DNA of 64,000 nucleotides from assembly GCA_017547805.1 (NCBI GenBank), contig JAFYOR010000028.1, forward strand, positions 102,789 through 166,788, given 5' to 3'. The DNA comes from Clostridia bacterium (GTDB lineage: Bacteria > Bacillota > Clostridia > Christensenellales > Aristaeellaceae). The notes under the pieces are model-generated. The model was not told the origin of the DNA, searched no databases, and worked only from the letters and a program-made list of their open reading frames with translations. Positions 23,324 to 48,767 of the stretch are shown here, in pieces (the first letter of the stretch is position 1; each line of letters opens with the position of its first letter). The translations under genes and the position numbers were made by a program.

Positions 23324-26300
23324 ATGAAAATCATGCGCATCCTCCTGGCCTTTGCGGTTATGCTCGCCATGCTGCTGCCCATGAGCGCATGGGCAGACGA
23401 TGGCCTCAAGGACAGCAAGGGGCAGTCTGTCGATATCGTTATCGTCATGGACCACAGCAACTCCATGGACAAGAACGACAGCGCCGATAACCGCATTATC
23501 GCCGCTGAAATGATCACCGCCATGTGCGATATGAACGGTTCCCGCGTTGCGTTTGTCCCGTTCAACAAAAAGGTTGTCTACAAAGGCACCTTTGTGGAGA
23601 TGAGCAATTTCACGTCCGCGGATAATCTGCGCCGTGAAATCGCGCACTATTCCACGATGATCAACCAGAGCATGAACCGCGGCAACCACAGTGTCTCCAC
23701 AACCGGCGGCACGGACTTTGGCGAGCCGCTTGCCTACGCCTATAACCTGCTTGAAGAAGCCAGGAGAGAAGGCTCCCAGAACAGCCCGATGATCATCCTG
23801 CTCTCCGACGGTGAGAACAGCCTGATTGTCAGCGGATCGCTCGTCGAGAAGGACGTGTATTTCTGGAACGACGCAAATAAGAACTACGCGCTCGTGCCCA
23901 ACAAGACGATCAAGAACGTCAAGAAAATGTCGGACATCACGGGCAACCCGGTGTTTGATAATCTGTATGACTACAGCGGCGAACCGCTGTCCACGCTCAA
24001 CGAAAACCTTCTGAGCGCCTTCAAGAAGTATGACGCGGACGACGCCACCGCCCTTGCCGAGGACGTAGCCCTGCGCAGCCAGGACGCTGGCATCCCGATC
24101 TATACCCTTCCGCTGTATGAAGCCGGCAAGGAGCACGACAGCTACATCTCTCTGCTTGGCCACATCGCGGACATCACCGGTGCCAAGAGCAACGCCATCA
24201 GCGCCAAGGATACCGATCAGCTTCCGTTCTTCTTCGGCGACATGTTTGCCGACAAGATCGGCAGTACGCAGCGTCTGCTCACCATTAACAAGACCGACGT
24301 GGAAAACGAATACGTCGTCGACATCCCCCTGCTCAACAGTTCCGTGCAGGAAGCCAATATCTACATCCCGCTCAAGTATGTCGATTCCGATTCCATCTAC
24401 CTCAAGGACAGCACCGGAAAGACCCGCCGCGCCAACAACGGCGACATCATCCGCATCGACATTCCCAAGGCCTTTGTGCTCTACAAGCTGCGTGTGGATT
24501 CCCCGCTCGGGATCTGGAAGCTTTACTTCCGCACCAACAAGGAAAACATCCAGCCCTCGGATATTTCCTTCAGCCTTCTGTATAATTACAACATCACCCT
24601 GACCTCTTCCCTCAACGGCGCATCCCTCAGCAAGAGCGGTACGCTGGATATGGTCAGCTACTTCTTTGATAACGAGACCAACAGCAAGTCTCTGGATACC
24701 AATCTGTATGTTCCCTGTCAGGACAATCTGAGCGAAGAAGACAAGATCAAGTTCACCTACCAGCTGCTCAATGCCAACCAGCAGCCCATCAGCGGCGCTC
24801 AGGGCAACATGGTCTACGACGCCTCCAACCAGATGATGAAGGCCTCTCTGGATCTGTCCGGATTTGATCTTCTGTCCGGCAGCTACTACTGCCAGATCAT
24901 CGCCAGCGGCGCCGGTCTGTATCGCGAAAACCGCATTCCCGTCACCCTCACCAACAATGCCCCGGCGGAAACCGCGCGCATTCAGAGCACGCTCAATGTT
25001 GAGTATCAGGACGATCCGTCCACCTACAGCCCGCAGACGCTGACCATCGATCTGATGGATTATGTCGAGGACATCGACCAGGATACGCTGACCTTCGGCA
25101 ACCTCAGCTACACCAGCGGCGACGGCCTGACCACCATCGCCATCAACGGAACCAAGATGGAAGTGCGCACCAAGCAGGATCCCGCCACCGGCCATTATGC
25201 CTACGGCCTGCAGCAGGGCACCATCACCGCCGACGACGGCGATAACGGCGTGTGCGACATCCACTTCTCCATCCAGATCAATTCCGGCTGGGCGGACGTC
25301 AATGACTGCGATTATCACACCACGGTTCTGGGCGCCGAGAACGGCGTCGCAGCCAAGAACGACACCATCACCTTCGCCATGACCCGTGTTTCCAAGACGA
25401 CGGGCGCTCAACTCGGCGTTGGTCTGGTGACCGGCGTGGTAACCCTCACCGACGCCAAGACCGGCATGCCCATCGCCACGCTGAACATGGCGCCCAGCGC
25501 AGACGGCAGCAGGCTGGAGCACAGCTACCAGACCGGCAACACCGCCAGCAGCTGGATTGCAAAGTGCGAATACTTCTACAACAACGAGGTGATTTCCAGC
25601 ACGGATATTCCCGTTGTCGTAAATAACGTCGCTCCGACCGCAAAGACGTTTGATGAGGTTTCCTCCCTCTTCCCCAAGAAACTGACGTTCAACGCTTCCT
25701 TCTTCGAGTTCCTTGAGAAGGAAAACCCGACCGCCTCTGTCGATCTGACGAAGATTTTCTCCGATGCTGACAACGAGCTGGGTCTGGTATATTCCATGGA
25801 CGCCGCTTCCCTGAGCGATAAGCTCGACTGCCGCATCAACGGCAGCACGCTCACCTTCACCGGCAAGGGCGCGGGCAGCATTCCCTTCACCGTAATCGCT
25901 ACGGACGGTGACAACGCCACCGCTACCTTCACCGGCACGATCAAGGTGGTCAACCTCTTCATGTACTGGATGATCCGTCTGCTGCTGCTGGTCGCAGCGG
26001 TGATCGGCGTGATCGTGATGATCGTCATCCTCATCCAGCGCGGCAAGCCCGCCCTGCCCAAGAACGGCAACCTGAGCGTGACCATCGGCAACATGCAGTT
26101 CGCCACCACCACCCAGCCGCCGTTCCCCTTCAAGGATATTTCCAAGCCGAAGGAGGCGCTGCCGCTGACTGCAGTGGTGACGATTGAAACCTGCGAAGCG
26201 GTTCAGTTCGAGTTCACCGATCTGGCATTCCTGAAGATCAGCCCGGTGAAGAACAGCGAAAAGATCCGCCTCACCCTGACCAAGAAGCCGGCTTCCTTCA

Positions 26301-26821
26301 TCGTCAAGCTCGATAACGACGATGCGAAGGTGCTCTCCGCCGGCAAGTCCGTTCTGCTCAACCAGAATCAGGAAATCACGCTTCAGGCTGTCGGCACGAC
26401 CGATCCTGAGCACTGCGTCCATATCAGCTACACCTTCGGCAGCGCGGATGCTCATACTCCCGATCCGGACGACTTCGGTCCTGACGCATTTGTCCCTCAG
26501 GACGGCGTTGATTTCTCCATTGGCTCCGTTGGCTCTGGCGACAACGGCTTTGACGGCGGCTCCGCGTTTGACGGCGGCGCTGCCTTCGCGCAGCCCCAGC
26601 AGTCCTTTACCAGCGGCAAGAATACCGGCTTCGGTGGAGACAGCGGCTTCGGCGGCGGCAGCGGCTTCGGCAGCGACAATGGCTTCGGCGGCGGCAGCGG
26701 CTTTGGCAGCGACAGCAGCTTCGGCGGCGACAGCGGCTTCGGCAGCGGCAGCAGCTTTGGCGGCGACAGCGGCTTCGGCAGCGACAACGGCTTCGGAGAC
26801 TGCAACGGCTTCGGCGGCTAA
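23324..26821 (+). CDS. Secreted, membrane-anchored vWA protein with Gly/Phe-rich cytosolic tail
   Basis: A 1165-residue protein of unrecognised overall family. Signal peptide 1-24 (ends SAWA/DD). A von Willebrand A domain follows with a complete MIDAS: DHSNS (43-47), TGGTDF threonine (about 128) and LLSDGE (about 151). Residues ~330-880 form beta-rich extracellular modules with cadherin-like D-x-D stretches (VEDIDQDTLTF, IFSDADNELGLVYS). One membrane helix (about 882-907) leads to a ~160-residue cytosolic domain and then a tail (about 1068-1165) of tandem FGGGSGFGSD-like repeats. First gene of the ten-gene run. Codon use is strongly biased to C/G-ending codons, suggesting high expression. The start is the first of two ATGs (23324, 23333); the ribosome site GAAAGGA is somewhat distant. 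Confidence 0.85.
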   Translation: MKIMRILLAFAVMLAMLLPMSAWADDGLKDSKGQSVDIVIVMDHSNSMDKNDSADNRIIAAEMITAMCDMNGSRVAFVPFNKKVVYKGTFVEMSNFTSADNLRREIAHYSTMINQSMNRGNHSVSTTGGTDFGEPLAYAYNLLEEARREGSQNSPMIILLSDGENSLIVSGSLVEKDVYFWNDANKNYALVPNKTIKNVKKMSDITGNPVFDNLYDYSGEPLSTLNENLLSAFKKYDADDATALAEDVALRSQDAGIPIYTLPLYEAGKEHDSYISLLGHIADITGAKSNAISAKDTDQLPFFFGDMFADKIGSTQRLLTINKTDVENEYVVDIPLLNSSVQEANIYIPLKYVDSDSIYLKDSTGKTRRANNGDIIRIDIPKAFVLYKLRVDSPLGIWKLYFRTNKENIQPSDISFSLLYNYNITLTSSLNGASLSKSGTLDMVSYFFDNETNSKSLDTNLYVPCQDNLSEEDKIKFTYQLLNANQQPISGAQGNMVYDASNQMMKASLDLSGFDLLSGSYYCQIIASGAGLYRENRIPVTLTNNAPAETARIQSTLNVEYQDDPSTYSPQTLTIDLMDYVEDIDQDTLTFGNLSYTSGDGLTTIAINGTKMEVRTKQDPATGHYAYGLQQGTITADDGDNGVCDIHFSIQINSGWADVNDCDYHTTVLGAENGVAAKNDTITFAMTRVSKTTGAQLGVGLVTGVVTLTDAKTGMPIATLNMAPSADGSRLEHSYQTGNTASSWIAKCEYFYNNEVISSTDIPVVVNNVAPTAKTFDEVSSLFPKKLTFNASFFEFLEKENPTASVDLTKIFSDADNELGLVYSMDAASLSDKLDCRINGSTLTFTGKGAGSIPFTVIATDGDNATATFTGTIKVVNLFMYWMIRLLLLVAAVIGVIVMIVILIQRGKPALPKNGNLSVTIGNMQFATTTQPPFPFKDISKPKEALPLTAVVTIETCEAVQFEFTDLAFLKISPVKNSEKIRLTLTKKPASFIVKLDNDDAKVLSAGKSVLLNQNQEITLQAVGTTDPEHCVHISYTFGSADAHTPDPDDFGPDAFVPQDGVDFSIGSVGSGDNGFDGGSAFDGGAAFAQPQQSFTSGKNTGFGGDSGFGGGSGFGSDNGFGGGSGFGSDSSFGGDSGFGSGSSFGGDSGFGSDNGFGDCNGFGG
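26626..26815 (+). repeat. Tandem FGGGSGFGSD-type coding repeat
   Basis: About ten imperfect units of 18-21 bases (GGCTTCGGC.GCGGCAGC-like) encode the Gly/Phe/Ser/Asp-rich tail of the vWA protein. Phe recurs every six or seven residues. Confidence 0.85.
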
Positions 26822-26952
26822 ACCACATACCTCTCCCGGGAAGCGGCGCAAATGCCGCTTCCCTCTTCCCACATTTTCCCCCTTCCGCTTTTTCTGTACG
26901 CCATTTCTACTATATCTAATGTACGTGCATTCTGTATAAAAAGGTGATCAAT
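26822..26952 (+). other. Intergenic gap with perfect hairpin
   Basis: GGGAAGCGGC (26838-26847) pairs perfectly with GCCGCTTCCC (26854-26863). The downstream sequence is pyrimidine-rich rather than a clean T-run, so it may be a partial terminator or an mRNA stabiliser allowing higher expression of the first gene than of the next. Confidence 0.6.
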
Positions 26953-29556
26953 TTGCCTCATCAATTGCATTCGGATGATTTTGAGCAGATTCTTTATGAT
27001 CGTGTAGAAAAAGTCGTTTCTCCGCTTCTGGTCATCGGCCTTGGCGGCGCCGGCGCAGACGCCGTGCGCACAATCAAGAAGACGTTCTCTGAGCGATTTG
27101 AGCTTCATCCGACGGAGGATGGCAAACAACTTCCGTACAATACGCGCTATCTCGTCTTTGACAGCGATTCTACCAGCGCTAACGGGTTTGACGCAGATGA
27201 GTTTGTCGATATCTCGCAGGGCGTCAACGTCAACAGACTGCTCGCTGATCCGATGCACCTGCATCTTTCTCCCTGCCAGAAACGCTGGATTCATCGCGAT
27301 CTACGCCTGACAACCCCGGTTTATTTCGGTTCCGGCTCATATCGCGCTGTTGCGCGTTTGATGCTTGACGAACATTCCAATGCCGTTTTCAGCAGTCTTC
27401 ATCAAGCGCTGAGAAAACTGGTCAGCGCGGAACTCGGCGCTCACCCTCCCGTCAATGCAATCCATATTATCGTGGTATCCGGCATGGGCGGAGGCACAGG
27501 CTCCGGCATATTCCTTGACATCGCTCAGATCGTCCAAAACATTATGGGACGCTTTCCGGGCATTGCCCATACGCTCTGCGGCTATTTCATTATGCCGGAT
27601 ATAACAGTTGCCCATGCGGCAAATACCGGCAACATGGCCAGGCTCGATACGATCCAGCGCAACGGCTATGCCGCGCTTAAAGAGCTCGATTTCTGGATGA
27701 ACTACGCGCATCATCAAACCAGGTATGAGATGGAATACACCAACGGTATACAGGTTGTCTGGAAAAAACCGTTTGATCACGTCACCCTGATCTGCGGCAC
27801 CGATGTTCAGGGTTGTGCCTTCAATAACCCATACAGGCATGCGCAGCAAACCATTGCAAAAACGCTGCTGCATCTTATGGCTGATAAGCCTGACAACAAC
27901 GGTTTTGATTCTTTGCGCGCCTACGACAGCACGCTTGAGGCCATGGCACATGCTTTCCCCGGACCGATGTTTCCGACAAATACCCATGGTTATCGCGCTA
28001 TCGCGTCATGCTCTCTGTCGTATCCGATAAAGGAACTGCTCAACTACGAGTGCAGGCTGCTCTTCAAGGATTTCATGCCCGCGCGCGATGAAAACGGCAA
28101 GTACATTCTCGATGACATGTTTAAGGCAAGCGGCTTTGCTGTCCGATGCTTTCAGAAGATCATGGCGGAAGACTTTCCCCAGCTCTATCAAGACTTTGTC
28201 AGAACCGTTCCTTTCCCCCATTACTGTCTTGATTTTGACGCGAGAAACACGTCGCTGGTGGAGGCACTGCGACTGCTTCGGCCGATTCCTCATAGCGCAT
28301 GCGCCGCGTGGCAGATTCAACAAGTCGCGCCATCCGCGCAGGCATTTGTGGATCGCCACTTCAACACAGTTTGGATGAACTTCATCGATCTTTGCCGCAG
28401 CTTCATCTCTTCTCCCGGATCCAGTGTTTTCAACCTGGTGCAGATTCTCAGGGATAATCCCGAAAACCTCCTTCGTGTTTTCCGCGATCATACTGACAGA
28501 GCGCACACCCTGTGTGACATGCTCTACAGCCAGATCCATACTGCGCAACGACACTGTGACGAAACCTACCAGAGGTTCCTCAATCCCCCGCTGCTAAGCA
28601 GAACAAGGTCAATTCAGACGTATCTTGACGCATTGCGCAATCTGCTGGATACCATCCGCCAGTTTGAGCTGGCCAAGCAATATGCACTTGTCATGAAGCA
28701 GCTCTTCAAGCGCATCGCCACCTTTGTCGACAGCGCGCTTGTTCCGCTGTGTGAGCTGTTTGAATCGATGGAGGCCGACCTCAACCATCCGCAAAGCCTC
28801 ATGAACATCCCGGGCAGCGATCTGTTTGACAGTTCCTTGCTGCAGCAGGATATTCACAACGCATTCGACGCCGCAAACATCAACCACGCTGTCAGCTGCA
28901 GATTTTTAAGCAAAGTGTGCGACTGCGCATTCGAATTTGACCCGGATCACGCTGCAAGCGACGGTATGATCTTTCCCTTCATGCAAAATGGCAGCGTCAA
29001 AGTGCTTGAGCTGATCAAGCAGGAGCTTTCCGCCCGCTTTGCAGACATCAACAGCATGTCTGCGGATGATATCATGCGCCGCCAGTGCTGCAGCCACAAT
29101 CCTGAAGTACAGCATGCTAACCAGCTGATGTACCTCAACACGCTTTGCAATACCATGGCGCACAGAACACATCCGCTCTTTTCCCTGAACGCACACGACT
29201 ATAATATTCAGTACAGTACTACAAAGCTTCTCTATATTTCTGTCCCTAAAGACGCGCCTGATACCTATCATTATTTCGATTCTGTCCGGCAACTCCCCGG
29301 ATTCGCCGGAATTCAGACGCTTACGCGCTCCTGTGCTTTACGGGATGAGATTTTCTGCTGCATAACCTGGGATGCGCTGCCGCTCTCCAGCTACAGCTGG
29401 ATGGAACAAATGAGGCAATCCTATGATATGCTCTTCCAAAGGTATCCGCACAGCGCTGAAGCAGCAGCCCTTCATCTGGTATGGAGCGGCAACGACGATA
29501 ACAACATCCGCGAAAACTGGCGTCTCCTGCCCTCACCAGCCATCACCCAAGGCTAA
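26953..29556 (+). CDS. Tubulin/FtsZ-like GTPase, short paralogue (Tubulin_2-type)
   Basis: An 867-residue cytosolic protein. Residues 1-~330 form a tubulin/FtsZ-type nucleotide-binding domain: T1 loop VIGLGGAGADAVRTIK (near 25), and the tubulin signature GGGTGSG (179-185) in VVSGMGGGTGSGIFLD. The remaining ~540 residues are mainly helical and of unknown fold. It is clearly homologous to the next gene over its whole length (shared RVEK..PLL.IGLGG.GADAVRT, ALKELDFWMNY, YEMEYTNG, LPPLYQDF-like blocks) but lacks that protein's C-terminal extension. Start taken as TTG at 26953 because AAAAAGGTGATCAAT precedes it exactly as AAGGTGATTGAT precedes the paralogue's ATG; a GTG at 26944 lies inside that ribosome site. 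Codon use is less biased than in the flanking genes. Confidence 0.85.
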   Translation: MPHQLHSDDFEQILYDRVEKVVSPLLVIGLGGAGADAVRTIKKTFSERFELHPTEDGKQLPYNTRYLVFDSDSTSANGFDADEFVDISQGVNVNRLLADPMHLHLSPCQKRWIHRDLRLTTPVYFGSGSYRAVARLMLDEHSNAVFSSLHQALRKLVSAELGAHPPVNAIHIIVVSGMGGGTGSGIFLDIAQIVQNIMGRFPGIAHTLCGYFIMPDITVAHAANTGNMARLDTIQRNGYAALKELDFWMNYAHHQTRYEMEYTNGIQVVWKKPFDHVTLICGTDVQGCAFNNPYRHAQQTIAKTLLHLMADKPDNNGFDSLRAYDSTLEAMAHAFPGPMFPTNTHGYRAIASCSLSYPIKELLNYECRLLFKDFMPARDENGKYILDDMFKASGFAVRCFQKIMAEDFPQLYQDFVRTVPFPHYCLDFDARNTSLVEALRLLRPIPHSACAAWQIQQVAPSAQAFVDRHFNTVWMNFIDLCRSFISSPGSSVFNLVQILRDNPENLLRVFRDHTDRAHTLCDMLYSQIHTAQRHCDETYQRFLNPPLLSRTRSIQTYLDALRNLLDTIRQFELAKQYALVMKQLFKRIATFVDSALVPLCELFESMEADLNHPQSLMNIPGSDLFDSSLLQQDIHNAFDAANINHAVSCRFLSKVCDCAFEFDPDHAASDGMIFPFMQNGSVKVLELIKQELSARFADINSMSADDIMRRQCCSHNPEVQHANQLMYLNTLCNTMAHRTHPLFSLNAHDYNIQYSTTKLLYISVPKDAPDTYHYFDSVRQLPGFAGIQTLTRSCALRDEIFCCITWDALPLSSYSWMEQMRQSYDMLFQRYPHSAEAAALHLVWSGNDDNNIRENWRLLPSPAITQG

Positions 29557-29683
29557 GCAGAGAAGACAGAAGACATGCCTGAACCGGCCATAACCGTCTC
29601 ACGCGCAGAAAATCCGATCAAATCGGCAATTCTGCCTGAAATATGTATCGCAACACTCAAAATCATTCAGGAAGGTGATTGAT
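29557..29683 (+). other. Short intergenic gap within the operon
   Basis: 127 bases without a gene, hairpin or clear promoter; it ends in the strong GGAAGGTGATT ribosome site of the next gene. Confidence 0.5.
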
Positions 29684-32600
29684 ATGGCAACCAAAGACCT
29701 CGCTTCCCAGATCCGGCAGGACGAACAGCTGGATGTCTCCTACGAGCGTGTTGAGAAACTCAATGCGCCTCTGCTCATCATCGGCCTTGGCGGCACCGGC
29801 GCCGACGCCGTGCGCACGGTCAAGAGAACCTTTGCCGAGCGCTTCAACCTGCCCGTAACCGCGGACGGCAAGGTGGTCCCCATCCCGCGCCGCACCGGCT
29901 ATCTCGTTTTTGACAGCGACATCACCGGCAAAGACGGTCTTGATGACAACGAAATCGTCAACATCGCGAAAAACGTCAATCTCGGCGCCAAGCTGATCGA
30001 TCCTGATCACAACAAGCTCACCCCGAGCCAGAAGCGCTGGGTGCACCGCAATCTGCATAAGGTCGGTCCGCAGGGCGGCACCGGCGCCGGCACCTATCGC
30101 GCCGCTTCCCGCCTGATGCTCGATGAAAGCTCCGACACCGTCTTCAGAAGCATCGAAGATGCCCTGACGAAGCTGTGTGACACGGAAGCCGGCGGTCAGG
30201 GCACTGCAGGCGCCACGCAGATCATCGTCGTCACCGGCATCGGCGGCGGCACCGGCTCCGGTACGTTCCTTGATATGGGCCAGATCATCCGCTATGTCAT
30301 CAAGAACACGTCCGGTCTGCAGCACCTCGCCTATAACCTCACCTGCTACATCGTCATGCCTGATCTCTCCATCAAGCATGTCATCGAAGAAGGCGGCGCC
30401 ACGGCCATGGTCGAGATCATCCAGCGCAACAGCTACGCCGCGCTCAAGGAACTCGACTTCTGGATGAACTATGAGCGTCATCATACCCAGTATGAGATGG
30501 AATACACCAACGGCAAGCGTGTCACCTGGGAGCAGCCGTATGATCATGTGACCCTCATGTGCGGCAGCAATATTCAGGGTCAGTCCTTCACCGGCTCCTA
30601 CAAGCTCGTGCAGCGCACCATCGCCGAAACCCTGCTGCACTATATGGCGGATGAAGAAGCCGACACCTCGGTTGGCGGCACCTCTCAGTTCTCCTTCCTC
30701 AGCTACGAAAACAACCTCGATGCGCAGAAGCATACCAGCTTCGCCAAGATGCTCCTGCCGCTCAACTACGGTTATCGTGCGGTCGGCGCGTATTCCAAGC
30801 GCATCCCCAAGAAGAAGATCCTCTTCTACGAAGGCATGCTCCTTTACGAGACCTTCATGCCCCCGCGCAACGAGTACGGCAAGCTCGTGCCCAACGACAA
30901 GCTGCTGCGCGACGGCAAGGCCACCCAGCGCTTTGGTCAGGTCGCGATGAAGACCTTCCCGCTGCTCTATCAGGACTTCGCCAAGACCGCTCCCTTCCCC
31001 AAGACCTTCCAGGATTTCAGCGCGAGGAACAACACGCTGGTGGAAGGCATGCGCCGCCTCAATCCGCCCGCGCACCAGAAGTTTAACCAGTGGCAGCAGA
31101 ATTCCGTCGCACCCGTCGCGCGTGAATTTGCGGAGAACTACCGCAAGGCCGTGTGGGACAACTTCGCCAAGCTGTGCAAGAGCATCATGTCCGATCCGGA
31201 GTACGGTCCCTACAGCCTGCTGCAGTACCTCAAGGACGATTCCGTCAGCCTGCGCGTGGCGTTCCGCAATTACGCCGCCAGCGCCCAGAGTGTGTGCAAC
31301 AACCTTTACGGCAGCATCGGCCAGGCGCAGCAGGTTTGCGTCAACACCTATCAGAACTTCCTCAAGCCGCCGCTGCTTGGCGGCGACAAGGCTGTGCAGA
31401 CGTATCTCTCCGCCCTGCGCGATCTGCTGGACACCGTACGCCAGTATGAGCTGGCCAAGCAGTACGCCCATGTGATGGAGCTGATCTGCAAGAGCATCGA
31501 TTCCTACATCGCCAACGCACTTGAGCCGCTGTGCGACCTGCTGGAGGAGCTGGAGGCCGACTTTGGCAATCCGGAGAACATCGCCGATTCCCTGAGCAGC
31601 GACCTGTTTGACGTCTCCACCCTGCACCAGAACATTAAGGATACGTTCGCTGCCGCCAACGCGGAAGGCACTGTCAGCCGCAGCTTCCTTGGCAAGCTGT
31701 GCGAAAGCACGTTCGAGTTTGAGCCCAATGTCGATACCGGCAGCTGTGGCATGACGTTCCTGTTTAAGCTCGACGGCCGCATCAAGGCGCTTCAGCTGAT
31801 GAAGTCGGAGATGGACGTGTGCTTCAAGAACATCAACAGCATGTCTCTTGAAAGCATCCTTCAGCTCCAGTGCTACGATCCCGATCCCGGCGCACAGACC
31901 GAGAAGCAGCAAAAGTACATCACGAACCTGGCCAATTCCGTCGTGGACAGCGCCATCCCGCTCTTCAGCATCATCCAGAACAGCAGCAACATCCGCACCA
32001 ACGCTGCCAAGTGCCTCTACTTCTCCGTCCCCAACGACGCGCCCAGCGTTCTTGACCACCTCAATCCGGGTGGAAACCCGATCAAGGTTCAGGGCGTGTC
32101 CATGACGCCCAAGGCCAGTTCCCTCACGGATCACATCTACTGCAGCATGACCTGGGATGTCCTGCCGCTCTACAGCTACGGTCCGATGGAAAGCCTGAAG
32201 GCAGCGTACGACACCACCCTCAACAACCCGAACCATCCGGACGCACCTGCCATTCACCTCGTGTGGAACGGCGATCCTGAGGGCGACTACCGCCAGAACT
32301 GGAGCCGTCTGCCCTCTCCCTCCCCGTACTACCTCTTCGGCGCGGACACGGTTTCCCAGAGCGAGAAGACGGAATACGAGGCTGCCCGCAAGCTGGCCAT
32401 GCGTGCGCTTGACAGCGGCATGCTGACTGTGAATTCCAGCGTCGCTAACCCGGTCATGCATCCGACCTACACCTTCCGCGTGTTCCGCGATGCCCATATC
32501 ACGCAGCACAACGCGATCATCCAGCGCAAGCTGAACGAGCTGCTCGCACGCAGGGATCCGATTACCGGCGCGCCGCTCTCTCCGGACGCCATGCTGGAAC

Positions 32601-41100: not shown

Positions 41101-41822
41101 AGTTCGCAGCTTTCAGAAAGATTTCCGATTTCGAAAAGGCCCTGCGCAGCTCCACCGCCCCGCGTGATCTGCTGTATAACGCCGTTCTCAAGGAACATTT
41201 CGTCAAGCTGAGGGATTCGCACGCGGGCAAGCATCTCTCCCTTGAACAGATGGATCGCCTGAATTCCGTTTCCAACCTGTTTGGCATCGGCACGAGCGAT
41301 CTTCCCCAGACCATCCGCAGGATCAGCGAGATCATCAGCCAGCCCGTTTATGACGGCAGCACCTTCGCGCAGTGCATGGACATCCTGCGAAAGAACCAGA
41401 TCGACCCGCCCGCCATTTCCAAGGAGCTTTACAGCCTGCTCAAAGACAGCCTGCCGTATCTGAGTTTCCCGCAGAATGTTCACGCTGCCATGCTCTGCTG
41501 CCTGAGCGCCAACGCGAAAAACGTGAAATGGAAATCGGTATTTGCAATGCTTGGCATGACGGTGCCGGAAAAGATGCCCAAGCCCTTCAGCGCGCAGGGG
41601 CAGAGCTGGCTGGCGTTCATTCACGCGCTTATGCGTGCGCTGGATCTGCTTGAAGCGTATCCCGGCTGCAGCTACGGCCGGCAGCTGATTGATTACCTGT
41701 GCAACGCGGAATTTGCCGAGTTCACGCAGAGCCTTGTCTCCAGCAAGCCCCAGCGGCTCGCTGCCGTCTATCCCGAGTATCCTGGCCGCAGCCCGCTCCT
41801 TGGGCAGTGGCTCTCCTGCTGA
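38193..41822 (+). CDS. Very large soluble helical protein of unknown function (1209 residues)
   Basis: No family is recognised with certainty. The N-terminal ~250 residues (MIVQHRLIGNIPGRGHGD..., HVHLTTFEIQSTHFGRPVLISANVFRP) are beta-rich and placed like the N-terminal domain of GTPase-associated proteins (GAP1-like) that follow double-GTPases, a weak resemblance from memory. The rest is a long run of helices resembling a helical-repeat scaffold. There is no signal peptide or membrane helix. AAGGAG lies nine bases before the ATG; it follows the GTPase gene by 25 bases, so the pair probably act together. Confidence 0.8.
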   Translation: MIVQHRLIGNIPGRGHGDPLLSPAFPLDSALTTTTAYRAPDAGYIPAQAGRLSDDGKYHVHLTTFEIQSTHFGRPVLISANVFRPANTTVRPMIYMNTVAMTQENGAPISGLSPETLLSFDRFITPAHFAKLNAMSSSLSADTWIPVLPPMRKPFFAPHTAAHRALLGRYWAAASARLFGGNAQVFSICLGPQTTCEAIIENAKSLLLCDILPYLPAAVNGIASMSACVLESAVRTLFKDSALAVVFPTDAAEPLQPTFDLRRRDGFPTLSTLEDSFISAVLDGSCAFMNGVLARHTALPGCDDPANASFAADYDIALMLYQLERTLLHGEALIPEEKLITAWKMLNSLLINRHHLTDGQVNHLLADVEQTLFSKLNTMQTALSAIAQDDLPALWHKALSVNENLFPEIAGVIAASPTAPSFLKMLESAPDLDADRTNRVASMITRICETYYTRKSFGDEQIAQLTSDPMLAKLNAMPEIRAALSEGLRRSNGVFSDNLLQTLPLTCLLLDGKQALLDAVALLHARYLSALPSAQEIGNLASAYKHYADEQVAHAFCAYFCDCLPIQITHIQPLCAMISSILPETDGVIAQLLDSARNNGILLDAAQTCTLFMQLLPKCTAPKLLADVYAGYEQSMTAAAGESAADRLMRLSRCAAVLNNIAFDAAPAVADILVSSGADAMIFTKAQGEAFANDLWPICHARNLVFDAFRDYLSAITANDQSRYFTDVALLDGVPLFAEQIRESFTGIVYNILAEVTKTHLCAPVAQIDEFFGTLLPLCTERSAIQHQLIRYVDASAKSAEGNAVDLFPWLRNMYELAKMHGLLPRLSPHELALISVRYLCSRCGRHNRPLSENEFAWMTDFAAQEPAAFSEVSKDVLSLYDGLLAASAGGQTEAQAIRLLASSSSTASYPSLCELDKRMVCNVFVGALAESGYDAAFSAAARDMERCAMTEEELLARTQKEAREALNRQFAAFRKISDFEKALRSSTAPRDLLYNAVLKEHFVKLRDSHAGKHLSLEQMDRLNSVSNLFGIGTSDLPQTIRRISEIISQPVYDGSTFAQCMDILRKNQIDPPAISKELYSLLKDSLPYLSFPQNVHAAMLCCLSANAKNVKWKSVFAMLGMTVPEKMPKPFSAQGQSWLAFIHALMRALDLLEAYPGCSYGRQLIDYLCNAEFAEFTQSLVSSKPQRLAAVYPEYPGRSPLLGQWLSC

Positions 41823-41854
41823 CCTTCATCATCAAAGCAAGGAAGTGTGCGTAT

Positions 41855-42373
41855 ATGAATACATCCAGAACACGCGTCAACGGCGTCTCCGCCGCATTCT
41901 CCGTCGCCATGGTGCTGACATATCTGCTGGCGCCGTTTTACAGCATCTCCCTGTCCGGCTTTTCCATCAGCGGTTTTCGCCTGATTGGACTGAGCCCCAT
42001 CACCATCGTGCCGGTGCTGCTGGGCATTTTCATGACGATTGGCGCCTGCCTGTTTCCCCCGCTCGTCGCCATCATCATTGAATCCCTGACGACGCTGTCC
42101 GTTCTCGTGTTTATGTTCATGGGCAATTCCATCGCTGCCACCTTTGTCAGCAGCTCGCTGAAGCTTCCCCCGGAATGGGGCATTGCCCTGAACACCACGC
42201 AGTCGCTCCTGCCGACAATCCAGCCCAGCTGGGGAGCAATCGTCGCGCTGGGACTGTGCATTGTCGCGCTGGTAATCGACATTCTGGCCAACATCTCCGG
42301 CCGTACCGAACCGAGCAAACTCTATATCGCCGGACAGGATCAGAATTTTGACCCGTTTGACAGTGGTTTCTAA
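41855..42373 (+). CDS. Small polytopic membrane protein of unknown function (172 residues)
   Basis: Four probable membrane spans (about 10-30 AAFSVAMVLTYLLAPFY, 48-70 ITIVPVLLGIFMTIGACLF, 70-95 PPLVAIIIESLTTLSVLVFMF, 125-148 WGAIVALGLCIVALVIDILA) and a short cytosolic tail ending QDQNFDPFDSGF. That last Phe/Asp/Gly motif recalls the Phe/Gly-rich tails of other operon members. The start at 41855 follows AAGGAAG. Confidence 0.8.
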   Translation: MNTSRTRVNGVSAAFSVAMVLTYLLAPFYSISLSGFSISGFRLIGLSPITIVPVLLGIFMTIGACLFPPLVAIIIESLTTLSVLVFMFMGNSIAATFVSSSLKLPPEWGIALNTTQSLLPTIQPSWGAIVALGLCIVALVIDILANISGRTEPSKLYIAGQDQNFDPFDSGF

Positions 42374-42416
42374 GGCAATTTCCTCATTCATCCAGTTGGA
42401 AAAGAGGCTTGATTCA

Positions 42417-45293
42417 ATGCATAAACCGTTATTTCAGATTCTTTCAGCCATGCTGCTGCTGTGCCTGCTCCTTCCGGGATGCGTCATGGCGGAGGAAGGC
42501 GCTGCACAGGTGTATATTGCCGTGGACAGCGGCACAAACCGTGCCATGCTGCCGCTGGCTGGTGTGCTGGCCTATCAGGCAGAGCAGAACGGAGCCGGCG
42601 TGCAGGTGATCGATCTGTTTGATCCCGCTGCTCCCGCCCTGTATACCAGCGGCAGCGGCGCTTCGCTTTCTGATGCGCTGAGCAGCTATGCAGGCAAAAA
42701 GCTCAATGAGAACCAGCAGAAGACGCACATCAGCACGTTCTGTGAAAGCTTCTTTGGCGAGTCCTTCTCCGCTTCCGGTCCGGCTGATGTATACGTTCTC
42801 TCCGGTTATGAGCGCGAGCTGATGACCTCCGGAAAATGGGATGAAAGCAAGAGTGCCTTTGCGCAAAAAGCGCTCAAAAACGCTTATTCCGCCGTCAGCA
42901 CCGCCATGGAAGCCAATCCGGAACTGAATATCCACTTTTTCTACTGCAACGTCAAGGAAAACACGCAGGATAAACTCGATGAAAAGCTGAAGGATTTTTA
43001 TGGCGATCGCGTAAACATGACCGTGCTGCCGGAAAATGCGGCCGTTCCTGATAGTATCGATCCTTCTGCGATCATGAGCGCGGTATTTGACAGCGTCAAA
43101 CACGTTGCCCAGTCTTCCTGCGACGTTCTTCCCGCCGACGGAATGGCCGCTTATCATTCCACCGGTACGCGCACGTGGCTGAGGATGGAGTTTAATTCGT
43201 CTCATGCGCCCTCAGCCGCGGAATTCATCCCGGACGGGGACGCGTCTTCCCCCATTCCCGCCTTCTGTGATACGATGGACCGCTTCTGGCTGCTGCTGCC
43301 CAAGGGAACACCCAGCGGCATCCTCTCCACGATGGACGAAGCAGGCGCAGCAAGCAATGCGCCGTACACCCTGACGGTGGCTTCCGAGCTTGAAAACGGC
43401 GTTCTGACGCTTTCAGGCGCGGATGGGCTGGCGTATACCCCCGGTCAGGCGCTGTCCCTGCCCAATGAAAACATCCAGCTTACCCTGACCATCGATCATC
43501 CGGGCTTTGAAACTGCCGCTCTCGTCCCCTCTCTTTCCTACGCCTTTAGCATCACGGACGAGAACGGAAATTCCACGAAACACATTACGCCGCTGTCCCT
43601 TACGCCGGATGAAACGCTGGCCAATACGTGGCATGCGGAGCTTCCCGCTCTGGCTATCGGCAGCGCCGGCGAACTCTGTGCGCTGTATTCGGTCTGGAAT
43701 CAGCCGCTGCCCGAGCAGGTTTATCCCTTCTCTGTCGGAAACCGCGCGCCCACGCTGCACGCGGACATTGCACAGCCGCTCAGCCTGACGGCATATTACG
43801 ACCTCCCCGGTATGGCATCCGTTCCGATGACGTTCGATCTGGCGCAGTACTTTACCGATTCGGACGTCAACGATCAGCTTTCTGCCGCAGCGCCTGAAAC
43901 ACACGAATCTTTCTATGATTATCAAACCCTCGGCACTTCGCTGGTCTACACCGCAAAAATGCCTTTGAGCGCCGATACGCCCGTGACCGAAATCACCGTG
44001 AACATGGAGGACAACCATTGCGCGCAGACACCGTGCCTGATTCATGTCACGCATCAATCCGTCATGGAACTTGTGGATGCGCTTCACATGGCGCTGCCCG
44101 AAGCGCTTAGCATGCCGGTCAACGAAAGCAGGCAATATGATCTGACGCTTTCTGCGCAGGCAATCTCCGCAGTCGATGAGGCATTCAGCGCGCTTTCCCT
44201 TCCTGCTTTGAAGGATGCGCTGCGCATCTATGTCAACGATGAGCTCAAGGAATTGACGCTTGCTGAGGATGGCAGCATCATGCTGAGCATCCCTGTCGCC
44301 GCGCCTTCTCAGGTAGGCGAGCAGGCGTTCACCGTTCGCGCTGAGCTGTCTTTCTTCCCCGAGGCAGTGCCTGTTTCGCTCCAGAAATTCTTCGCCGCGC
44401 CGCAGTTCACCATTCGCTTCATCAACAATCCGCCCCGTCTGGCAGAGAACGTCAGCGCCTCCCGGTCTGCGGATATCGATATCTCCGGCTTCCCGGGCAG
44501 CTACAAGGCCGTTCGTTTGGATGAAATCTTCGGCACAATCATTCCCGTCAGCCTGTTCGCCAATGACGAAAACGAAACACTGACCTATCAGTTGAAAGCG
44601 CCGAAGAACCTTGCTCTCGTGTATGGGCTTTCGGATGTGCAGGATTCAGGTCAGACGTTCCTCTATTCCTTCACCAGCAATGACGCAGCTGCCGCCCAGC
44701 CGCTCAACATCGAATTCCTTGCGCCGGGCAAAGCGACCATTGAACTGAAAGTCATCGACAGCGGAAACAATGAACTGACCGTATACTATTTTGCCACGCT
44801 TCATTCCGTTTTCTCGCGGATTCTTCTGATTATCGTCATCGTCGTGCTTCTCCTCGCTGCCGCTGCCGCCGCAACGCTGCTGATTCTCAAGCGGATGCGT
44901 CCCTCCTTTGAGGGCGCCTGCGCGGACATCAGCCTCCTGCGTGCCCAGAGCGATGACAAATGGTTTAATCCGCAGACGTATATCACCCTCCCGCTTTCCG
45001 GCTACGAAAAGAATCCTGTCACGCTAATGACGCTGCTCACTGCCGGCGGCCTGCTTCCTCCCAGAGACTGTGAAGCCGACGTGCTGACCCACATCGTCTT
45101 TGCTCCCGAAAAGGACGGTTCTTTCCGCGTCAGCTGCTCCGGTTCTGCGGCAAAGGACGCTGCAGCGCTGCTCATCAACGGCAGATCTCTTGACGAAACG
45201 CGCGTCTGCTTCTGCGGCGATCAGGAACTGACCATCCGCTTCACGGATTCTTCCACCAATGAAATGCTCTTTATCCGCATGTATAGAAGATAA
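42417..45293 (+). CDS. Secreted single-pass ectodomain protein (958 residues), partner-like to the vWA protein
   Basis: A signal peptide (MHKPLFQILSAMLLLCLLLPGCVMA) has a lipobox-like LPGC and also a signal-peptidase I site (VMA/EE). Near its mature start, YIAVDSGTNRAM looks like a degenerate vWA first strand lacking the full MIDAS. Beta-rich repeats with cadherin-like stretches (YFTDSDVNDQL, LFANDENETLTYQL) fill residues ~330-795. A membrane helix (about 801-825) leads to a ~130-residue cytosolic domain. Domain order matches the first gene of the operon (signal peptide, ectodomain, one span, cytosolic domain) but it lacks the Gly/Phe tail. AGAGG lies nine bases before the ATG. Confidence 0.82.
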   Translation: MHKPLFQILSAMLLLCLLLPGCVMAEEGAAQVYIAVDSGTNRAMLPLAGVLAYQAEQNGAGVQVIDLFDPAAPALYTSGSGASLSDALSSYAGKKLNENQQKTHISTFCESFFGESFSASGPADVYVLSGYERELMTSGKWDESKSAFAQKALKNAYSAVSTAMEANPELNIHFFYCNVKENTQDKLDEKLKDFYGDRVNMTVLPENAAVPDSIDPSAIMSAVFDSVKHVAQSSCDVLPADGMAAYHSTGTRTWLRMEFNSSHAPSAAEFIPDGDASSPIPAFCDTMDRFWLLLPKGTPSGILSTMDEAGAASNAPYTLTVASELENGVLTLSGADGLAYTPGQALSLPNENIQLTLTIDHPGFETAALVPSLSYAFSITDENGNSTKHITPLSLTPDETLANTWHAELPALAIGSAGELCALYSVWNQPLPEQVYPFSVGNRAPTLHADIAQPLSLTAYYDLPGMASVPMTFDLAQYFTDSDVNDQLSAAAPETHESFYDYQTLGTSLVYTAKMPLSADTPVTEITVNMEDNHCAQTPCLIHVTHQSVMELVDALHMALPEALSMPVNESRQYDLTLSAQAISAVDEAFSALSLPALKDALRIYVNDELKELTLAEDGSIMLSIPVAAPSQVGEQAFTVRAELSFFPEAVPVSLQKFFAAPQFTIRFINNPPRLAENVSASRSADIDISGFPGSYKAVRLDEIFGTIIPVSLFANDENETLTYQLKAPKNLALVYGLSDVQDSGQTFLYSFTSNDAAAAQPLNIEFLAPGKATIELKVIDSGNNELTVYYFATLHSVFSRILLIIVIVVLLLAAAAAATLLILKRMRPSFEGACADISLLRAQSDDKWFNPQTYITLPLSGYEKNPVTLMTLLTAGGLLPPRDCEADVLTHIVFAPEKDGSFRVSCSGSAAKDAAALLINGRSLDETRVCFCGDQELTIRFTDSSTNEMLFIRMYRR

Positions 45294-45305
45294 GAGGTGA
45301 ATGAC

Positions 45306-46796
45306 ATGTCTCAATTCAACAACGGCAACTTCGATGATCCTTTCTCCGGTGGCAGCAGCGGCGGCTTCGGCGGCGGTAGCGGCAGCTTCGGCGGAGGCAG
45401 CGACTTTAGCGGCGGAAATCATTTTTCCAACGCTTTTGATCAGACCACCTATGCCGGTCCGCCGACAAGAAAGCGCTACGGTCTTCACTGGTTACAGACG
45501 CTGTTCGTCTTTGGCTTTGCAATCGGCGCCTGCCTGCTGCTGAAGGGAACGCTTGATATCCGCTATGCTGCAAACCCGACGCTTACGCCCCATCTTGTTC
45601 CCTTCAACGCGCTTTTCTTTGGCGTTCTCGCTGCGGTGATTCTCCTGACGGTCTTCTTTGTTGAGGTCTTTACCTCGGCCATGACGCCCCACTTCAGCCG
45701 CAAGCTTCAGCTGCTTGTCGTCGTGATCGCCGTTGCGCTTTGTTCCCTGATCGGCGCGCTAACCGAGCTGTTCTACGTCAACTACTACGTCGCGCCGCAG
45801 CTTGTGCCCACGCCGATACCCGTCGCCACCCCGACGCCGGGACCGACAGCCACGCCTTCGCCCACGCCTGTTCCCAGCAACGAGCTGATCGTCTTCGCGC
45901 TGGACAAGAGCGGCTCCATGTCCGGCGATAAAGACAAACAGGCTGTTGCTGCGCTCAATACGGTTATCCAGAAAATGTCCTCCACGACCAAGGTTGGTCT
46001 TATCGTCTTTGACGACGAGATTCTTACCACCGTCCCCATCGCTGAGAACACGGCAGCGCAGCGCAGCAAGCTCTCCGCTGCAATCGCTACGCCCATCTCC
46101 GGCTTGACCGACTTCCCCAATGTCATGGATGCAGCGCTTCCGATGTTCTCCAAGGTTTCCATTCCGGCCAATACGGATGCGAAGCTCGTCTTCGTCACGG
46201 ATGGTTCCGGCGGATCGGTGGACAAATACGTAGCGCAGTGCAAACAGATGGGCATTCAGGTTTCCTGCGTGCTGATCGGCAATATCGCCATGCAAGACCT
46301 GAACAAAATCATCAAAGAGACCGGCGGTATGCTTGTCACGGCAAAGAACCCCACGGATATCCTGAACGTGACGCAGTCCATCGTTCTGCAGAACACGCCG
46401 GTGCCCACGCCCACGCCTTTCCTGGGTACGCCGACTCCTACACCGATTCCCAAGATCGGCAACATGATGTACACCACCCCTGATTCCGACGCTTATCTTG
46501 CCGCGGCGCTTATCCTCTTCGGCCTGATCATCGGCGTCTCCGTTACGCTCATGCTCAGCCTGCATGGACAGCTTCGCCTGCAGCTCTTCCTCTCTCCGCT
46601 GACAGGTCTGCTTGTGCTTCTGTCGATCCGCAATGGCTGGGTCGCGCCCGATGAGTACTGTATGCTCTTCTCGCTGTTCGGTCTGCTGCTGATGCGCCGC
46701 AACTCCGCCTATGGCTCCGGCAGCACACCCAGCCGCCCTGCCGGAAACAGCCAGAACGCCTTCCCCAGCTCTTCCGGCAGCGACTGGACGTTCTAA
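45306..46796 (+). CDS. Polytopic membrane protein with extracellular vWA domain
   Basis: A 496-residue protein. A cytosolic Gly/Ser/Phe-rich N-terminus (residues 3-43, GGFGGGSGSFGGGS-like) precedes three membrane spans (about 60-160). A Thr/Pro linker (about 173-195) leads to a vWA domain with MIDAS DKSGS (200-204), FPNVMDA (TxxD-like position) and LVFVTDGSGG. A second Thr/Pro linker (about 365-384) returns to three C-terminal spans and a Ser-rich cytosolic tail ending SDWTF. Counting spans places the vWA domain outside. Start at 45306 chosen for AAGAGGTGA upstream; 45297 GTG lies inside that site. Confidence 0.85.
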   Translation: MSQFNNGNFDDPFSGGSSGGFGGGSGSFGGGSDFSGGNHFSNAFDQTTYAGPPTRKRYGLHWLQTLFVFGFAIGACLLLKGTLDIRYAANPTLTPHLVPFNALFFGVLAAVILLTVFFVEVFTSAMTPHFSRKLQLLVVVIAVALCSLIGALTELFYVNYYVAPQLVPTPIPVATPTPGPTATPSPTPVPSNELIVFALDKSGSMSGDKDKQAVAALNTVIQKMSSTTKVGLIVFDDEILTTVPIAENTAAQRSKLSAAIATPISGLTDFPNVMDAALPMFSKVSIPANTDAKLVFVTDGSGGSVDKYVAQCKQMGIQVSCVLIGNIAMQDLNKIIKETGGMLVTAKNPTDILNVTQSIVLQNTPVPTPTPFLGTPTPTPIPKIGNMMYTTPDSDAYLAAALILFGLIIGVSVTLMLSLHGQLRLQLFLSPLTGLLVLLSIRNGWVAPDEYCMLFSLFGLLLMRRNSAYGSGSTPSRPAGNSQNAFPSSSGSDWTF

Positions 46797-46895: not shown

Positions 46896-48767
46896 ATGGC
46901 CAAGAAATCTCAGGGCGGACCGGATCAAACGCCGAATTTCGGCAATCCGTTTGCCTCCAATCCTGTCAACGCTTTCGGTTCTTCCGATCCTTTCACTTCC
47001 GACGACCCCTTCAGCGCGCCTGCCGGCGCCCCGCCCCGCGCCCAGCGCGCCAATGACGCCTATGGCGGCCCTTTTGCCGATGATTCGGACGGATTTGGCA
47101 GCGGCGGCGGCTACGGCGGTCATAGCGGCGGCCCCAACCGCACACTGCTGCTCCTGCTGATCTGCGTTGGACTTCCGCTTCTCATCTCCGCGCTGCTGTA
47201 TATCACCAGCCCGAAAGATATCCCGCCGGAGCTCGTGCCGACGCTTGACACCGGCACCATCACCTCCACCGTTACGTCACAGGCCGATGGCAACTACCAT
47301 GTCCTGCTCACGCACAACATGACCGATCTGGATCCGCAGCAGGTGTATGTTGCCGGCTTCATGATGGCGCCGCAGGGCGAAACGCTGGTCGCCGTCAACG
47401 AGCCGGAGTTCATCCGCAATGTGACCTCCCATACAGCCAGCGCGCAGCTGCTGATCACGCGCCCGGGCACGTATCAGATTGCGTTCTACTCCTATTCGCT
47501 GCTTCACACCGCGCCGGCCATTACCGCCACGCAGGTGCTGACGATTGGCGATGGTTCCGCACAGCCGGTTCAGCCGGATGAGACGAGCATCATCGTCATC
47601 ACGCCTTCGCCGTCTCCCACGCCGACGCCCACGCCCAGTCCGACGCCTTCTCCCAGCCCGACGCCGTACGTGCCGAATGTAACGCCCACGCCGACGCCCG
47701 TGCCGCTGAAGACGACGCCTTCTTCCGATCTGTTCAAGCTCTACGATATCAATACGAGGTACTACTATCAGACGCTGACAGACAAGCAGAAGCAGACATA
47801 TTCGGAAATGTACGACGGCATCGCCAATTTCTCCAAGAACATTACCCTTACCCCCTGCAGCGAGGCGGATTACAAGCTGGCATACGCTGTGCTGAAGTAC
47901 GATACGCCGGAACTCTTCCATTGGGACTATGAAGACGATACCGTGTATTATACGACCGACATCAGCGGAATGCGCATCGCAATGAAGCCCTCGCTCTATA
48001 CCTATTCGCAGACGGACTTCCGCACGAAGCTCAATCAGATCATCAGCGAAATCAAGTCCGTTGCTGCACGCTGCGGCAGCGGCGCAAGCGATTATCAGAT
48101 CGAGCTGGCGCTTTACGAGCATGTCATCAATTCCTGTTATTACGACAAGGTACTGCCGCATTGCTCGTATGCGGACTCTGTATACCTGTACGAGTACGCC
48201 AAGTGTACCGGCTACGCCAACGCGCTGAACCTCGCGCTGCGCATCTGCGGCATCCCCTGCGCCAGCGTCATCGGCAACACCTATGACAACGGCGTCATCG
48301 CACCGACGTCGCACATGTGGAGCGTGGTCAAGATCGGCGGAAAGTGGTATGGCTGCGACGCCACATGGGACGAGATGGACGAACTGCCTGTATCTCACAA
48401 GTATTTCAACATCAACGATTCTTTGATGTACAAGGCTCGTACCATCGCCGAGGAATATGACCTGCCCGCCCCTCCGAGGTGTACCAGTCTGGATGCCAAC
48501 TACGTCCGCAAGGAGCAGGTATACGTTACCGCCGGCTCCGACGTTCATGCCATCGTCGCCAGAAGTATGGCGAATACCATCGATAACGGCGGCGGAATTC
48601 TGGAGCTGCTGTTCGAGAGCGGCGCCGACTTCAATACTGCCCGTATCCAGCTTGGTAATTCCAAGATCTACAACCAGGTTAAGAAGTATACGAGCAGGGG
48701 ATTCAAGTTTACATACCTGTGTCCCGCTGCCGAAGTCAACCACATTTATCTCGAACTCAAACGCTGA
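46896..48767 (+). CDS. Membrane-anchored extracellular transglutaminase-like protein
   Basis: A 623-residue protein with a cytosolic, Gly/Phe/Pro/Asp-rich N-terminus (about 7-83, FGNPFASNPVNAFGSSDPF...DGFGSGGGYGG), one membrane helix (about 86-106), a beta domain, and a Thr/Pro/Ser linker (about 238-268) typical of wall-spanning stalks. The C-terminal papain-like transglutaminase domain has the catalytic triad Cys437 (KCTGYANALN), His473 (TSHMW) and Asp488 (GCDATWD). Such bacterial domains act as proteases, transamidases or peptidoglycan amidases. Last gene of the operon, followed by a strong terminator. Confidence 0.88.
   Translation: MAKKSQGGPDQTPNFGNPFASNPVNAFGSSDPFTSDDPFSAPAGAPPRAQRANDAYGGPFADDSDGFGSGGGYGGHSGGPNRTLLLLLICVGLPLLISALLYITSPKDIPPELVPTLDTGTITSTVTSQADGNYHVLLTHNMTDLDPQQVYVAGFMMAPQGETLVAVNEPEFIRNVTSHTASAQLLITRPGTYQIAFYSYSLLHTAPAITATQVLTIGDGSAQPVQPDETSIIVITPSPSPTPTPTPSPTPSPSPTPYVPNVTPTPTPVPLKTTPSSDLFKLYDINTRYYYQTLTDKQKQTYSEMYDGIANFSKNITLTPCSEADYKLAYAVLKYDTPELFHWDYEDDTVYYTTDISGMRIAMKPSLYTYSQTDFRTKLNQIISEIKSVAARCGSGASDYQIELALYEHVINSCYYDKVLPHCSYADSVYLYEYAKCTGYANALNLALRICGIPCASVIGNTYDNGVIAPTSHMWSVVKIGGKWYGCDATWDEMDELPVSHKYFNINDSLMYKARTIAEEYDLPAPPRCTSLDANYVRKEQVYVTAGSDVHAIVARSMANTIDNGGGILELLFESGADFNTARIQLGNSKIYNQVKKYTSRGFKFTYLCPAAEVNHIYLELKR

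What the first reader, a model, noticed from the sequence alone, without database searches (positions are those of the whole stretch)
23324..48767. Ten-gene tubulin-like / vWA / GTPase / transglutaminase operon: candidate undescribed transmembrane system
Ten same-strand genes with one promoter and a strong terminal terminator encode cytosolic nucleotide-driven parts (two tubulin-like proteins, one zinc-ribbon GTPase, two giant soluble proteins) and envelope parts (two vWA proteins, a large ectodomain protein, a four-span protein, a transglutaminase-like protein). This suggests a GTP-regulated intracellular polymer or scaffold coupled to an extracellular adhesive or wall-modifying complex. Families are recognised from motifs; the joint function is inference. 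From memory, Tubulin_2, double-GTPase and vWA families occur in predicted conflict or signalling clusters, but I know no experimental account of this set.
Basis: partly seen in the sequence, partly recalled or inferred. Interest (0 to 1): 0.92.

Follow-up and report, generated by a model that had tools for sequence, protein, structure and literature searches.

The report
Tubulin-like scaffold with surface-protein arms
An unnamed bacterial genome carries a ten-gene block, absent as a whole from a close relative, that seems to couple tubulin-like GTP-binding proteins inside the cell to adhesive and enzyme-bearing proteins outside; its general kind was predicted before, but this version and its shared protein tails look new.

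Summary
In detail: ten same-strand genes (23324-48767) ending in a strong double terminator. Two Tubulin_2 proteins, a zinc-ribbon GTPase, two vWA proteins and a transglutaminase-like protein are confirmed or supported by HMM; four proteins match no family. The block is a unit: one relative has the flanks together without it; P4- or P6-type proteins occur in 14 of 308 family genomes, all with a strong Tubulin_2; P4-type loci keep the order. It is not an undescribed kind: Makarova and Koonin (2010) and Kaur et al. (2020) predicted such operons; neither main text names a transglutaminase in them. New here: P6 holds the GAP1 position without detectable GAP1 similarity; vWA1 and Ecto are paralogues sharing a cytosolic beta domain; tubulin pairs arose at least three times; membrane proteins of unrelated families carry F/G-rich or acidic-aromatic cytosolic tails, many ending in F or W in this subtype (not in distant loci), suggesting a common dock. 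Best reading: a GTP-switched submembrane tubulin-like scaffold that gathers surface proteins; a conflict system is the main rival. My paper searches listed no experiment on such operons. New variant of a known kind.

The parts
23081..23112 (+). terminator-like hairpin after the upstream GH3 gene; upstream edge of the block
   Evidence: alignment with the genome lacking the block breaks at 23063
23164..23192 (+). promoter-like site (TTGAAA-17-TATACT)
   Evidence: consensus match only
23324..26821 (+). vWA1: signal peptide, vWA with MIDAS DHSNS, ectodomain (weakly Ig/cadherin-like, under cut-off), one span, cytosolic beta domain, F/G-rich C-tail
26944..29556 (+). TubA: Tubulin_2 protein, short form, long branch in the tree
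29684..33994 (+). TubB: Tubulin_2 protein with long C-terminal part and six zinc-ribbon units
34081..36633 (+). P4: soluble protein without a known family; alpha/beta, helical, then beta-rich part in a low-confidence model
36680..38167 (+). GTPase: four zinc-ribbon cysteines (C5, C8, C160, C163), P-loop, DxxGE, KxD; DO-GTPase2-like
38193..41822 (+). P6: soluble protein in the GAP1 position, family unknown
41855..42373 (+). TM4: about four spans, ends FDPFDSGF
42417..45293 (+). Ecto: signal peptide, ectodomain, one span, cytosolic beta domain; paralogue of vWA1 without a recognisable vWA
45306..46796 (+). vWA2: F/G-rich N-tail, three spans, outer vWA (MIDAS DKSGS), two spans, tail ending DWTF
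46896..48767 (+). TGase: F-rich N-tail, one span, outer transglutaminase-like domain with Cys-His-Asp
48786..48870 (+). two tandem terminator hairpins

Best explanation
A membrane-spanning, GTP-regulated surface machine. Shown: the ten genes form one unit; two proteins carry an intact tubulin/FtsZ nucleotide loop; the zinc-ribbon GTPase has its P-loop, DxxGE and KxD motifs; the envelope proteins carry vWA/MIDAS and transglutaminase-like domains, on the outer side by hydropathy. Inferred: TubA/TubB assemble GTP-dependently under the membrane; the GTPase, with P6 in the place that GAP1 takes in a related locus, switches this assembly (in most relatives, though not in the window, the GTPase ends in a basic-aromatic stretch that could bind the membrane); vWA1, vWA2, TM4 and TGase are gathered by the scaffold through their F/G-rich or acidic-aromatic cytosolic tails and through the beta domain of vWA1/Ecto; outside, the MIDAS vWA domains bind a ligand and the transglutaminase-like enzyme cuts or crosslinks protein, for adhesion or wall remodelling.
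For: Families; motifs; absent as a block from one relative; P4 or P6 in 14 of 308 genomes, all 14 among the 21 with strong Tubulin_2, 0 of the other 287; kept order; shared beta domain of vWA1 and Ecto, hhalign E 1.9e-13; F/G tails: 17 of 682 ORFs in 36 stretches match, 13 of them labelled as system proteins, and in 364 kb of the own genome 4 of 1161 ORFs match, three of them vWA1, vWA2 and TGase; terminal F/W in 17 of 50 membrane components against 2 of 53 soluble ones and 11 of 141 other ORFs.
Against: No assay of polymerisation, localisation or binding. The tail criterion was set after seeing the tails, and terminal F/W did not recur in 15 more distant loci (2 of 16 vWA-type proteins against 18 of 205 others). 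TGase is in 4 of 7 complete P4-type loci. Seven of the 21 strong Tubulin_2 genomes have neither P4 nor P6 at E 1e-6. P4 gave no usable model and the beta domain no fold match at E 0.001. Makarova and Koonin find that FtsZl1 seems to lack parts used for FtsZ filaments, though they think filaments likely. The window's GTPase lacks the aromatic C-terminus.
Confidence: 0.42

Rival explanations
1. A conflict (defence) system: the GTPase/P6 pair senses an invader and triggers tubulin-like assembly and membrane or surface effectors, as Kaur et al. propose for GAP1-N2 systems.
For: Same component classes as the tubulin theme in PMC7159879; patchy presence: 2 of 29 genomes of the genus, window's own included, have Tubulin_2; absent at this site in a relative.
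Against: No PADLOC model matches any of the ten proteins at E 0.01; no toxin or nuclease domain in the Pfam scans; the eleven flanking proteins scanned are wall, sugar and transport types; no phage or plasmid match of TubB.
Confidence: 0.28
2. A membrane-remodelling or vesicle machine with tubulin-like proteins as the force-giving part, as Makarova and Koonin propose for FtsZl1.
For: FtsZl1 + vWA + GTPase + lineage-specific membrane proteins is their set; the GTPase C-terminus is basic and aromatic in 11 of the 13 complete rows (not in the window or G927).
Against: The large outer domains and the transglutaminase point to outer work; no remodelling factor was recognised.
Confidence: 0.2
3. Cell-wall recovery partner: the operon belongs functionally with the GH3, NamZ and epimerase genes around it.
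For: It sits between a GH3 and a NamZ gene.
Against: G003 and G009 have the wall cluster without the operon. The flanks of the other operons were not annotated.
Confidence: 0.07

Closest known systems
FtsZl1 (Tubulin_2) membrane operons, Makarova and Koonin 2010, PMC2875224
   Same: N-terminal FtsZ-like domain with long C-terminal extension, vWA protein with MIDAS, distinct GTPase with Walker motifs and KD, lineage-specific membrane proteins
   Different: Here two tubulins, P4, P6, a vWA1/Ecto paralogue pair with common tail domain, transglutaminase arm, shared tails; no OmpA protein or protein kinase
GAP1-N2 double-GTPase systems, tubulin theme of Firmicutes, Kaur et al. 2020, PMC7159879
   Same: Two tubulins, two vWA proteins (one with several spans and outer vWA), zinc-ribbon GTPase followed by a large soluble protein
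   Different: No detectable GAP1-N2 or GAP1-M, no YtkA match, GTPase under the Pfam cut-off; the one mention of transglutaminase there concerns another system
   Same: Tubulin_2, large soluble protein, multi-span vWA and DO-GTPase2 in one run
   Different: Its last protein is a clear GAP1 (GAP1-N2 2.2e-39, GAP1-M 1.7e-22)
SSB C-terminal tip and FtsZ C-terminal peptide (recalled, no call)
   Same: short tails used as docking tags, acidic and aromatic-ended in SSB
   Different: here on several unrelated membrane proteins; partner unknown

Membership tests
FtsZl1/Tubulin_2 operon (Makarova and Koonin 2010) | FtsZ-like protein with GGGTG(S/T)G and long C-terminal extension | tested here: met
   Tubulin_2 2.7e-43 and 1.6e-40; GMGGGTGSG and GIGGGTGSG
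FtsZl1/Tubulin_2 operon (Makarova and Koonin 2010) | vWA protein in the operon, MIDAS intact | tested here: met
   DxSxS in 11 of 13 first-gene proteins, window included
FtsZl1/Tubulin_2 operon (Makarova and Koonin 2010) | diverged GTPase with Walker A and B and TxKD-type signature | tested here: met
   invariant G183, G188-K189, D265, G268-E269, K356, D358 in 16 rows
FtsZl1/Tubulin_2 operon (Makarova and Koonin 2010) | OmpA-family or protein kinase genes (frequent, not universal) | tested here: not met
   no such Pfam match in the ten proteins
GAP1-N2 double-GTPase system | DO-GTPase with zinc ribbon and Walker B glutamate | tested here: inconclusive
   DO-GTPase2 23.9 bits in the window and 24.1 in G253, under 27; G286 27.7, G706 36.2, G626 38.5, G678 38.4 over it; Cys and Glu invariant
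GAP1-N2 double-GTPase system | GAP1 (N2, M, C domains) downstream of the GTPase | tested here: not met
   P6 has the position but neither it nor the seven relatives scanned match a GAP1 model at E 10; hhalign against three GAP1-position proteins E 0.88 and 0.78. Weak test: of those three only G706 passes Pfam, G626 is under the cut-off and G678 has no match
GAP1-N2 double-GTPase system | FNIII-repeat component | tested here: inconclusive
   P4 C-terminal part is beta-rich in a low-confidence model; among 15 P4-position proteins only one weak Fn3-type match, E 0.037, in G626
GAP1-N2 double-GTPase system, Firmicutes tubulin theme | two tubulins and two vWA, one multi-span with outer vWA | tested here: met
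   most relatives of this subtype have one tubulin
GAP1-N2 double-GTPase system, Firmicutes tubulin theme | one vWA fused to YtkA | tested here: not met
   no YtkA match in vWA1 or vWA2 at E 1
FtsZl1 and GAP1-N2 systems | GTP-dependent polymer or switch activity | not testable with these tools
   needs protein

The most novel reading that the evidence does not exclude
A plug-in surface array: a tubulin-like, GTP-switched scaffold under the membrane collects interchangeable outer modules (MIDAS vWA, transglutaminase, and large ectodomain proteins such as the 893- and 909-residue ones beside two relatives), all addressed by one kind of short cytosolic tag (F/G-rich or acidic-aromatic, often ending in F or W). 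This would be a bacterial cytoskeleton that organises surface proteins by a common tail code.
Probability: 0.22. Interest if true: 0.8.

Novelty: new variant of a known kind. Interest (0 to 1): 0.56.

Why it matters
The Tubulin_2 (FtsZl1) family was described in 2010, and my searches listed no experiment on its operons (one search listed 40 of 121 papers; subscription papers and preprints are not held). This locus gives a defined ten-gene unit, a natural empty site and a short tail motif, which make the question of what these tubulins hold on to directly testable. A bacterial tubulin that arranges adhesins and enzymes on the cell surface would be a new job for the superfamily.

Tried and rejected
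P6 as a plain GAP1: not claimed, since neither Pfam nor profile comparison supports it; by eye the first 130 residues look alike, which is a lead only. P4 as a degenerate tubulin: P4 profile against tubulin profile E 0.12; the P4-position proteins of three GTPase/GAP1-position loci (G706, G626, G678) gave E 0.0023 and one of them a Tubulin_2 hit at E 0.03; not claimed. Ecto as a second vWA: its first 300 residues align to vWA1 only over the signal peptide. Beta tail domain as FHA or FNIII: best Foldseek E 0.054, no decision. Terminal F/W as a feature of all Tubulin_2 loci: rejected. The count of 17 of 23 tails ending in F/W uses eight P4-type loci that I chose; with the left-out P4-bearing loci (G850, G1032, G008) it is 17 of 27 by the endings (Fisher against 11 of 141, 1.1e-9; rows are related). 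The hypergeometric values are not used as evidence: the P4 profile held rows from 10 of the 11 genomes that it found and the P6 profile from 7 of 13. Mobile carriage: no match of TubB in plasmids or phages. The genome-contig scan gave one locus, sharing only the zinc-ribbon tail. A search of the whole own genome with the vWA1 tail found only itself, missing even vWA2 and TGase, so it is insensitive.

Full report
What is there. Ten + strand genes fill 23324-48767, with gaps of 12-127 nt. The block starts 212 nt after a terminator-like hairpin behind a GH3 gene and ends in two tandem hairpins folding to -50.6 kcal/mol, z -10.4 against shuffles. In order: vWA1, TubA, TubB, P4, GTPase, P6, TM4, Ecto, vWA2, TGase. 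Pfam confirms both tubulins (Tubulin_2, 2.7e-43 and 1.6e-40), both vWA domains and a transglutaminase core; the GTPase is DO-GTPase2-like but below that family's cut-off; P4, P6, TM4 and Ecto match no family. NCBIfam gives only matches under its cut-offs and PADLOC none at E 0.01.

Motifs. Both tubulins keep the GGGTGSG loop, and TubB bears six zinc-ribbon units at its end. In 16 aligned GTPases four cysteines, the P-loop, DxxGE and KxD are invariant. The vWA1 MIDAS is present in 11 of 13 first-gene proteins. Cys, His and Asp are intact in 6 of 6 true transglutaminase rows; two further rows of that alignment (G998, G1015) lack them and were drawn in by low-complexity sequence.

A unit. Tubulin_2 was searched in 308 genomes of the family, the window's own included: 47 match at E 0.001; 21 of these have a strong match (best E 1e-41 or better) and 26 only weak ones, E 8e-8 or worse. 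A P4 profile matches 11 of 308 and a P6 profile 13 of 308 at E 1e-6; the 14 genomes together all lie within the 21, and none of the other 287 matches. The profiles were built from rows of these loci (10 of the 11, 7 of the 13), so the informative part is the 0 of 287. The P4 match is on the tubulin's contig in 11 of 11; the P6 match in 11 of 13, partly in G847, while in G910 and G1032 it is on another contig. In the 11 P4-type loci, reading away from the tubulin: Tub then P4 and P4 then GTPase 11 of 11; GTPase then P6 9 of 9 where the contig runs on; P6 then TM4 8 of 8; TM4 then an Ecto/vWA1-type protein 7 of 7; Ecto then vWA2 5 of 7; a transglutaminase in 4 of 7, directly after vWA2 on the same strand in two (window, G974) and on the other strand in G816 and G286. 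In G286 vWA2 stands before the tubulin; G850 was assembled because the map dropped its tubulin. Locus G974 repeats the window's order to the last gene with one tubulin. In wider samples Tubulin_2 over the cut-off is rare: 9 of 396 genomes of the order, 11 of 391 of the class.

Empty site. In G003, of the same genus, the window's 18564-23063 and 50034-57487 align with about 80 nt between them; the ten genes and the neighbouring NamZ are absent from that place (G003 has NamZ-type genes elsewhere). G009 keeps NamZ beside the next genes but has no operon; G017 has the GH3 with other genes after it. The neighbours form what looks like a peptidoglycan-recovery cluster: GH3, NamZ, two PF00144 hydrolases and an enolase-type epimerase. 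No tRNA is in the window, and TubB has no plasmid or phage match.

Inner relations. vWA1 and Ecto are paralogues: profiles of 13 and 11 rows align at E 1.3e-23 over 466 columns of the second half, and their cytosolic domains at E 1.9e-13; Ecto shows no vWA. Tubulin pairs arose separately at least three times: the G253 pair and the G626 pair each stand together with full support, and the window's pair groups with the single tubulin of G008 (100/100, order within it open); TubA has a long branch, 0.97 against 0.21 for TubB. G678 and G1041 are long branches whose place is unsure.

Tails. vWA1 (C-tail), vWA2 and TGase (N-tails), inner by hydropathy, are F/G/S/D-rich. With one criterion 17 of 682 ORFs in 36 stretches match; 13 are labelled system proteins, and three of the other four are membrane proteins lying in or beside the operons of G399, G816 and G927. 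In 364 kb of the own genome (of 2.67 Mb; 1161 ORFs, shadows included) four match: the three operon proteins and one short serine-rich ORF. Many membrane components end in F or W after acidic residues (DDFDF, DDEW, NDFEF, DWTF): 17 of 50 against 2 of 53 soluble components and 11 of 141 other ORFs (Fisher 2.8e-5; rows are related, so the value is generous). The criterion came after seeing the tails, and in 15 more distant loci terminal F/W is at background, 2 of 16 against 18 of 205. It is a trait of this subtype, and even there the window's vWA1 ends in FGG. That the tails share one partner is inference.

Prior work. I read section 29 and passages of PMC7159879 and the outline, parts 1 and 2 of 5 and passages of PMC2875224: both describe this kind, from genomes alone. 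PMC9871819 (passages) sets Tubulin_2 apart from the main FtsZ/tubulin line; PMC11237479 (one passage) cites DO-GTPases as predicted in membrane stress. Searches for more listed no title that treats these operons by experiment; three further papers that hold 'FtsZl1' (PMC4672568, PMC5898192, PMC9723716) were seen as listings only.

Verdict. The window holds a P4/P6 subtype of the FtsZl1 operons; it meets the core features of that set. Membership in the GAP1-N2 system is not met on GAP1 and YtkA by sequence and is open on the rest; it may still work like one. I favour a GTP-switched scaffold that gathers surface proteins (0.42) over a conflict system (0.28) and membrane remodelling (0.2).

Structure attempts. 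P4 alone gave mean pLDDT 35 and is no use beyond a hint of secondary structure; the vWA1/Ecto tail domain gave an all-beta model of pLDDT 56 with no fold match at E 0.001. At E 1 no solved structure matches TubB outside its zinc ribbons; the GTPase profile drew only weak partial matches.

Noticed in passing
L038:6947-19827, L051:9429-22226, L084:10439-16455 and others: A second kind of Tubulin_2 locus in nine stretches: tubulin, then a 625-752 residue protein with one or two spans, then a 996-1498 residue protein with four to six spans, mostly after a vWA-type protein; six proteins scanned gave no Pfam family over cut-off.
   Followed up: partly
window 16382-23062 and 48885-55486: What looks like a peptidoglycan-recovery cluster around the operon: GH3, NamZ, two PF00144 hydrolases, enolase-type epimerase, ABC permeases, MATE, PIG-L, GNAT.
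   Followed up: partly
L095 (G816) 3-8631; L101 (G927) 2473-5154: Similar 909- and 893-residue proteins with F-rich inner N-tail, one span and large ectodomain beside the operon, and three vWA2-type genes in G816: possible interchangeable outer modules.
   Followed up: partly
window 38080-38167 and relatives: GTPases of 11 of 13 complete rows end in a basic-aromatic stretch (GLFGRRNK type); possible membrane-binding helix. The window's own and that of G927 lack it.
   Followed up: partly
L047:3348-6095: HerA/DUF87-type ATPase after the GAP1-position protein of the G678 locus, with one small gene between (4.5e-11).
   Followed up: no
genomes of family f1, e.g. G379, G881, G397: 26 genomes with only weak Tubulin_2 matches (8e-8 to 1e-3), mostly in open frames of 535-898 residues: perhaps another divergent tubulin-like family.
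   Followed up: no
L004:8573-10390: Protein of a Clostridia MAG sharing only the zinc-ribbon tail with TubB.
   Followed up: no
window 23285-26872 -, 29663-33307 - and others: Very long opposite-strand open frames over real genes; read as shadows.
   Followed up: no
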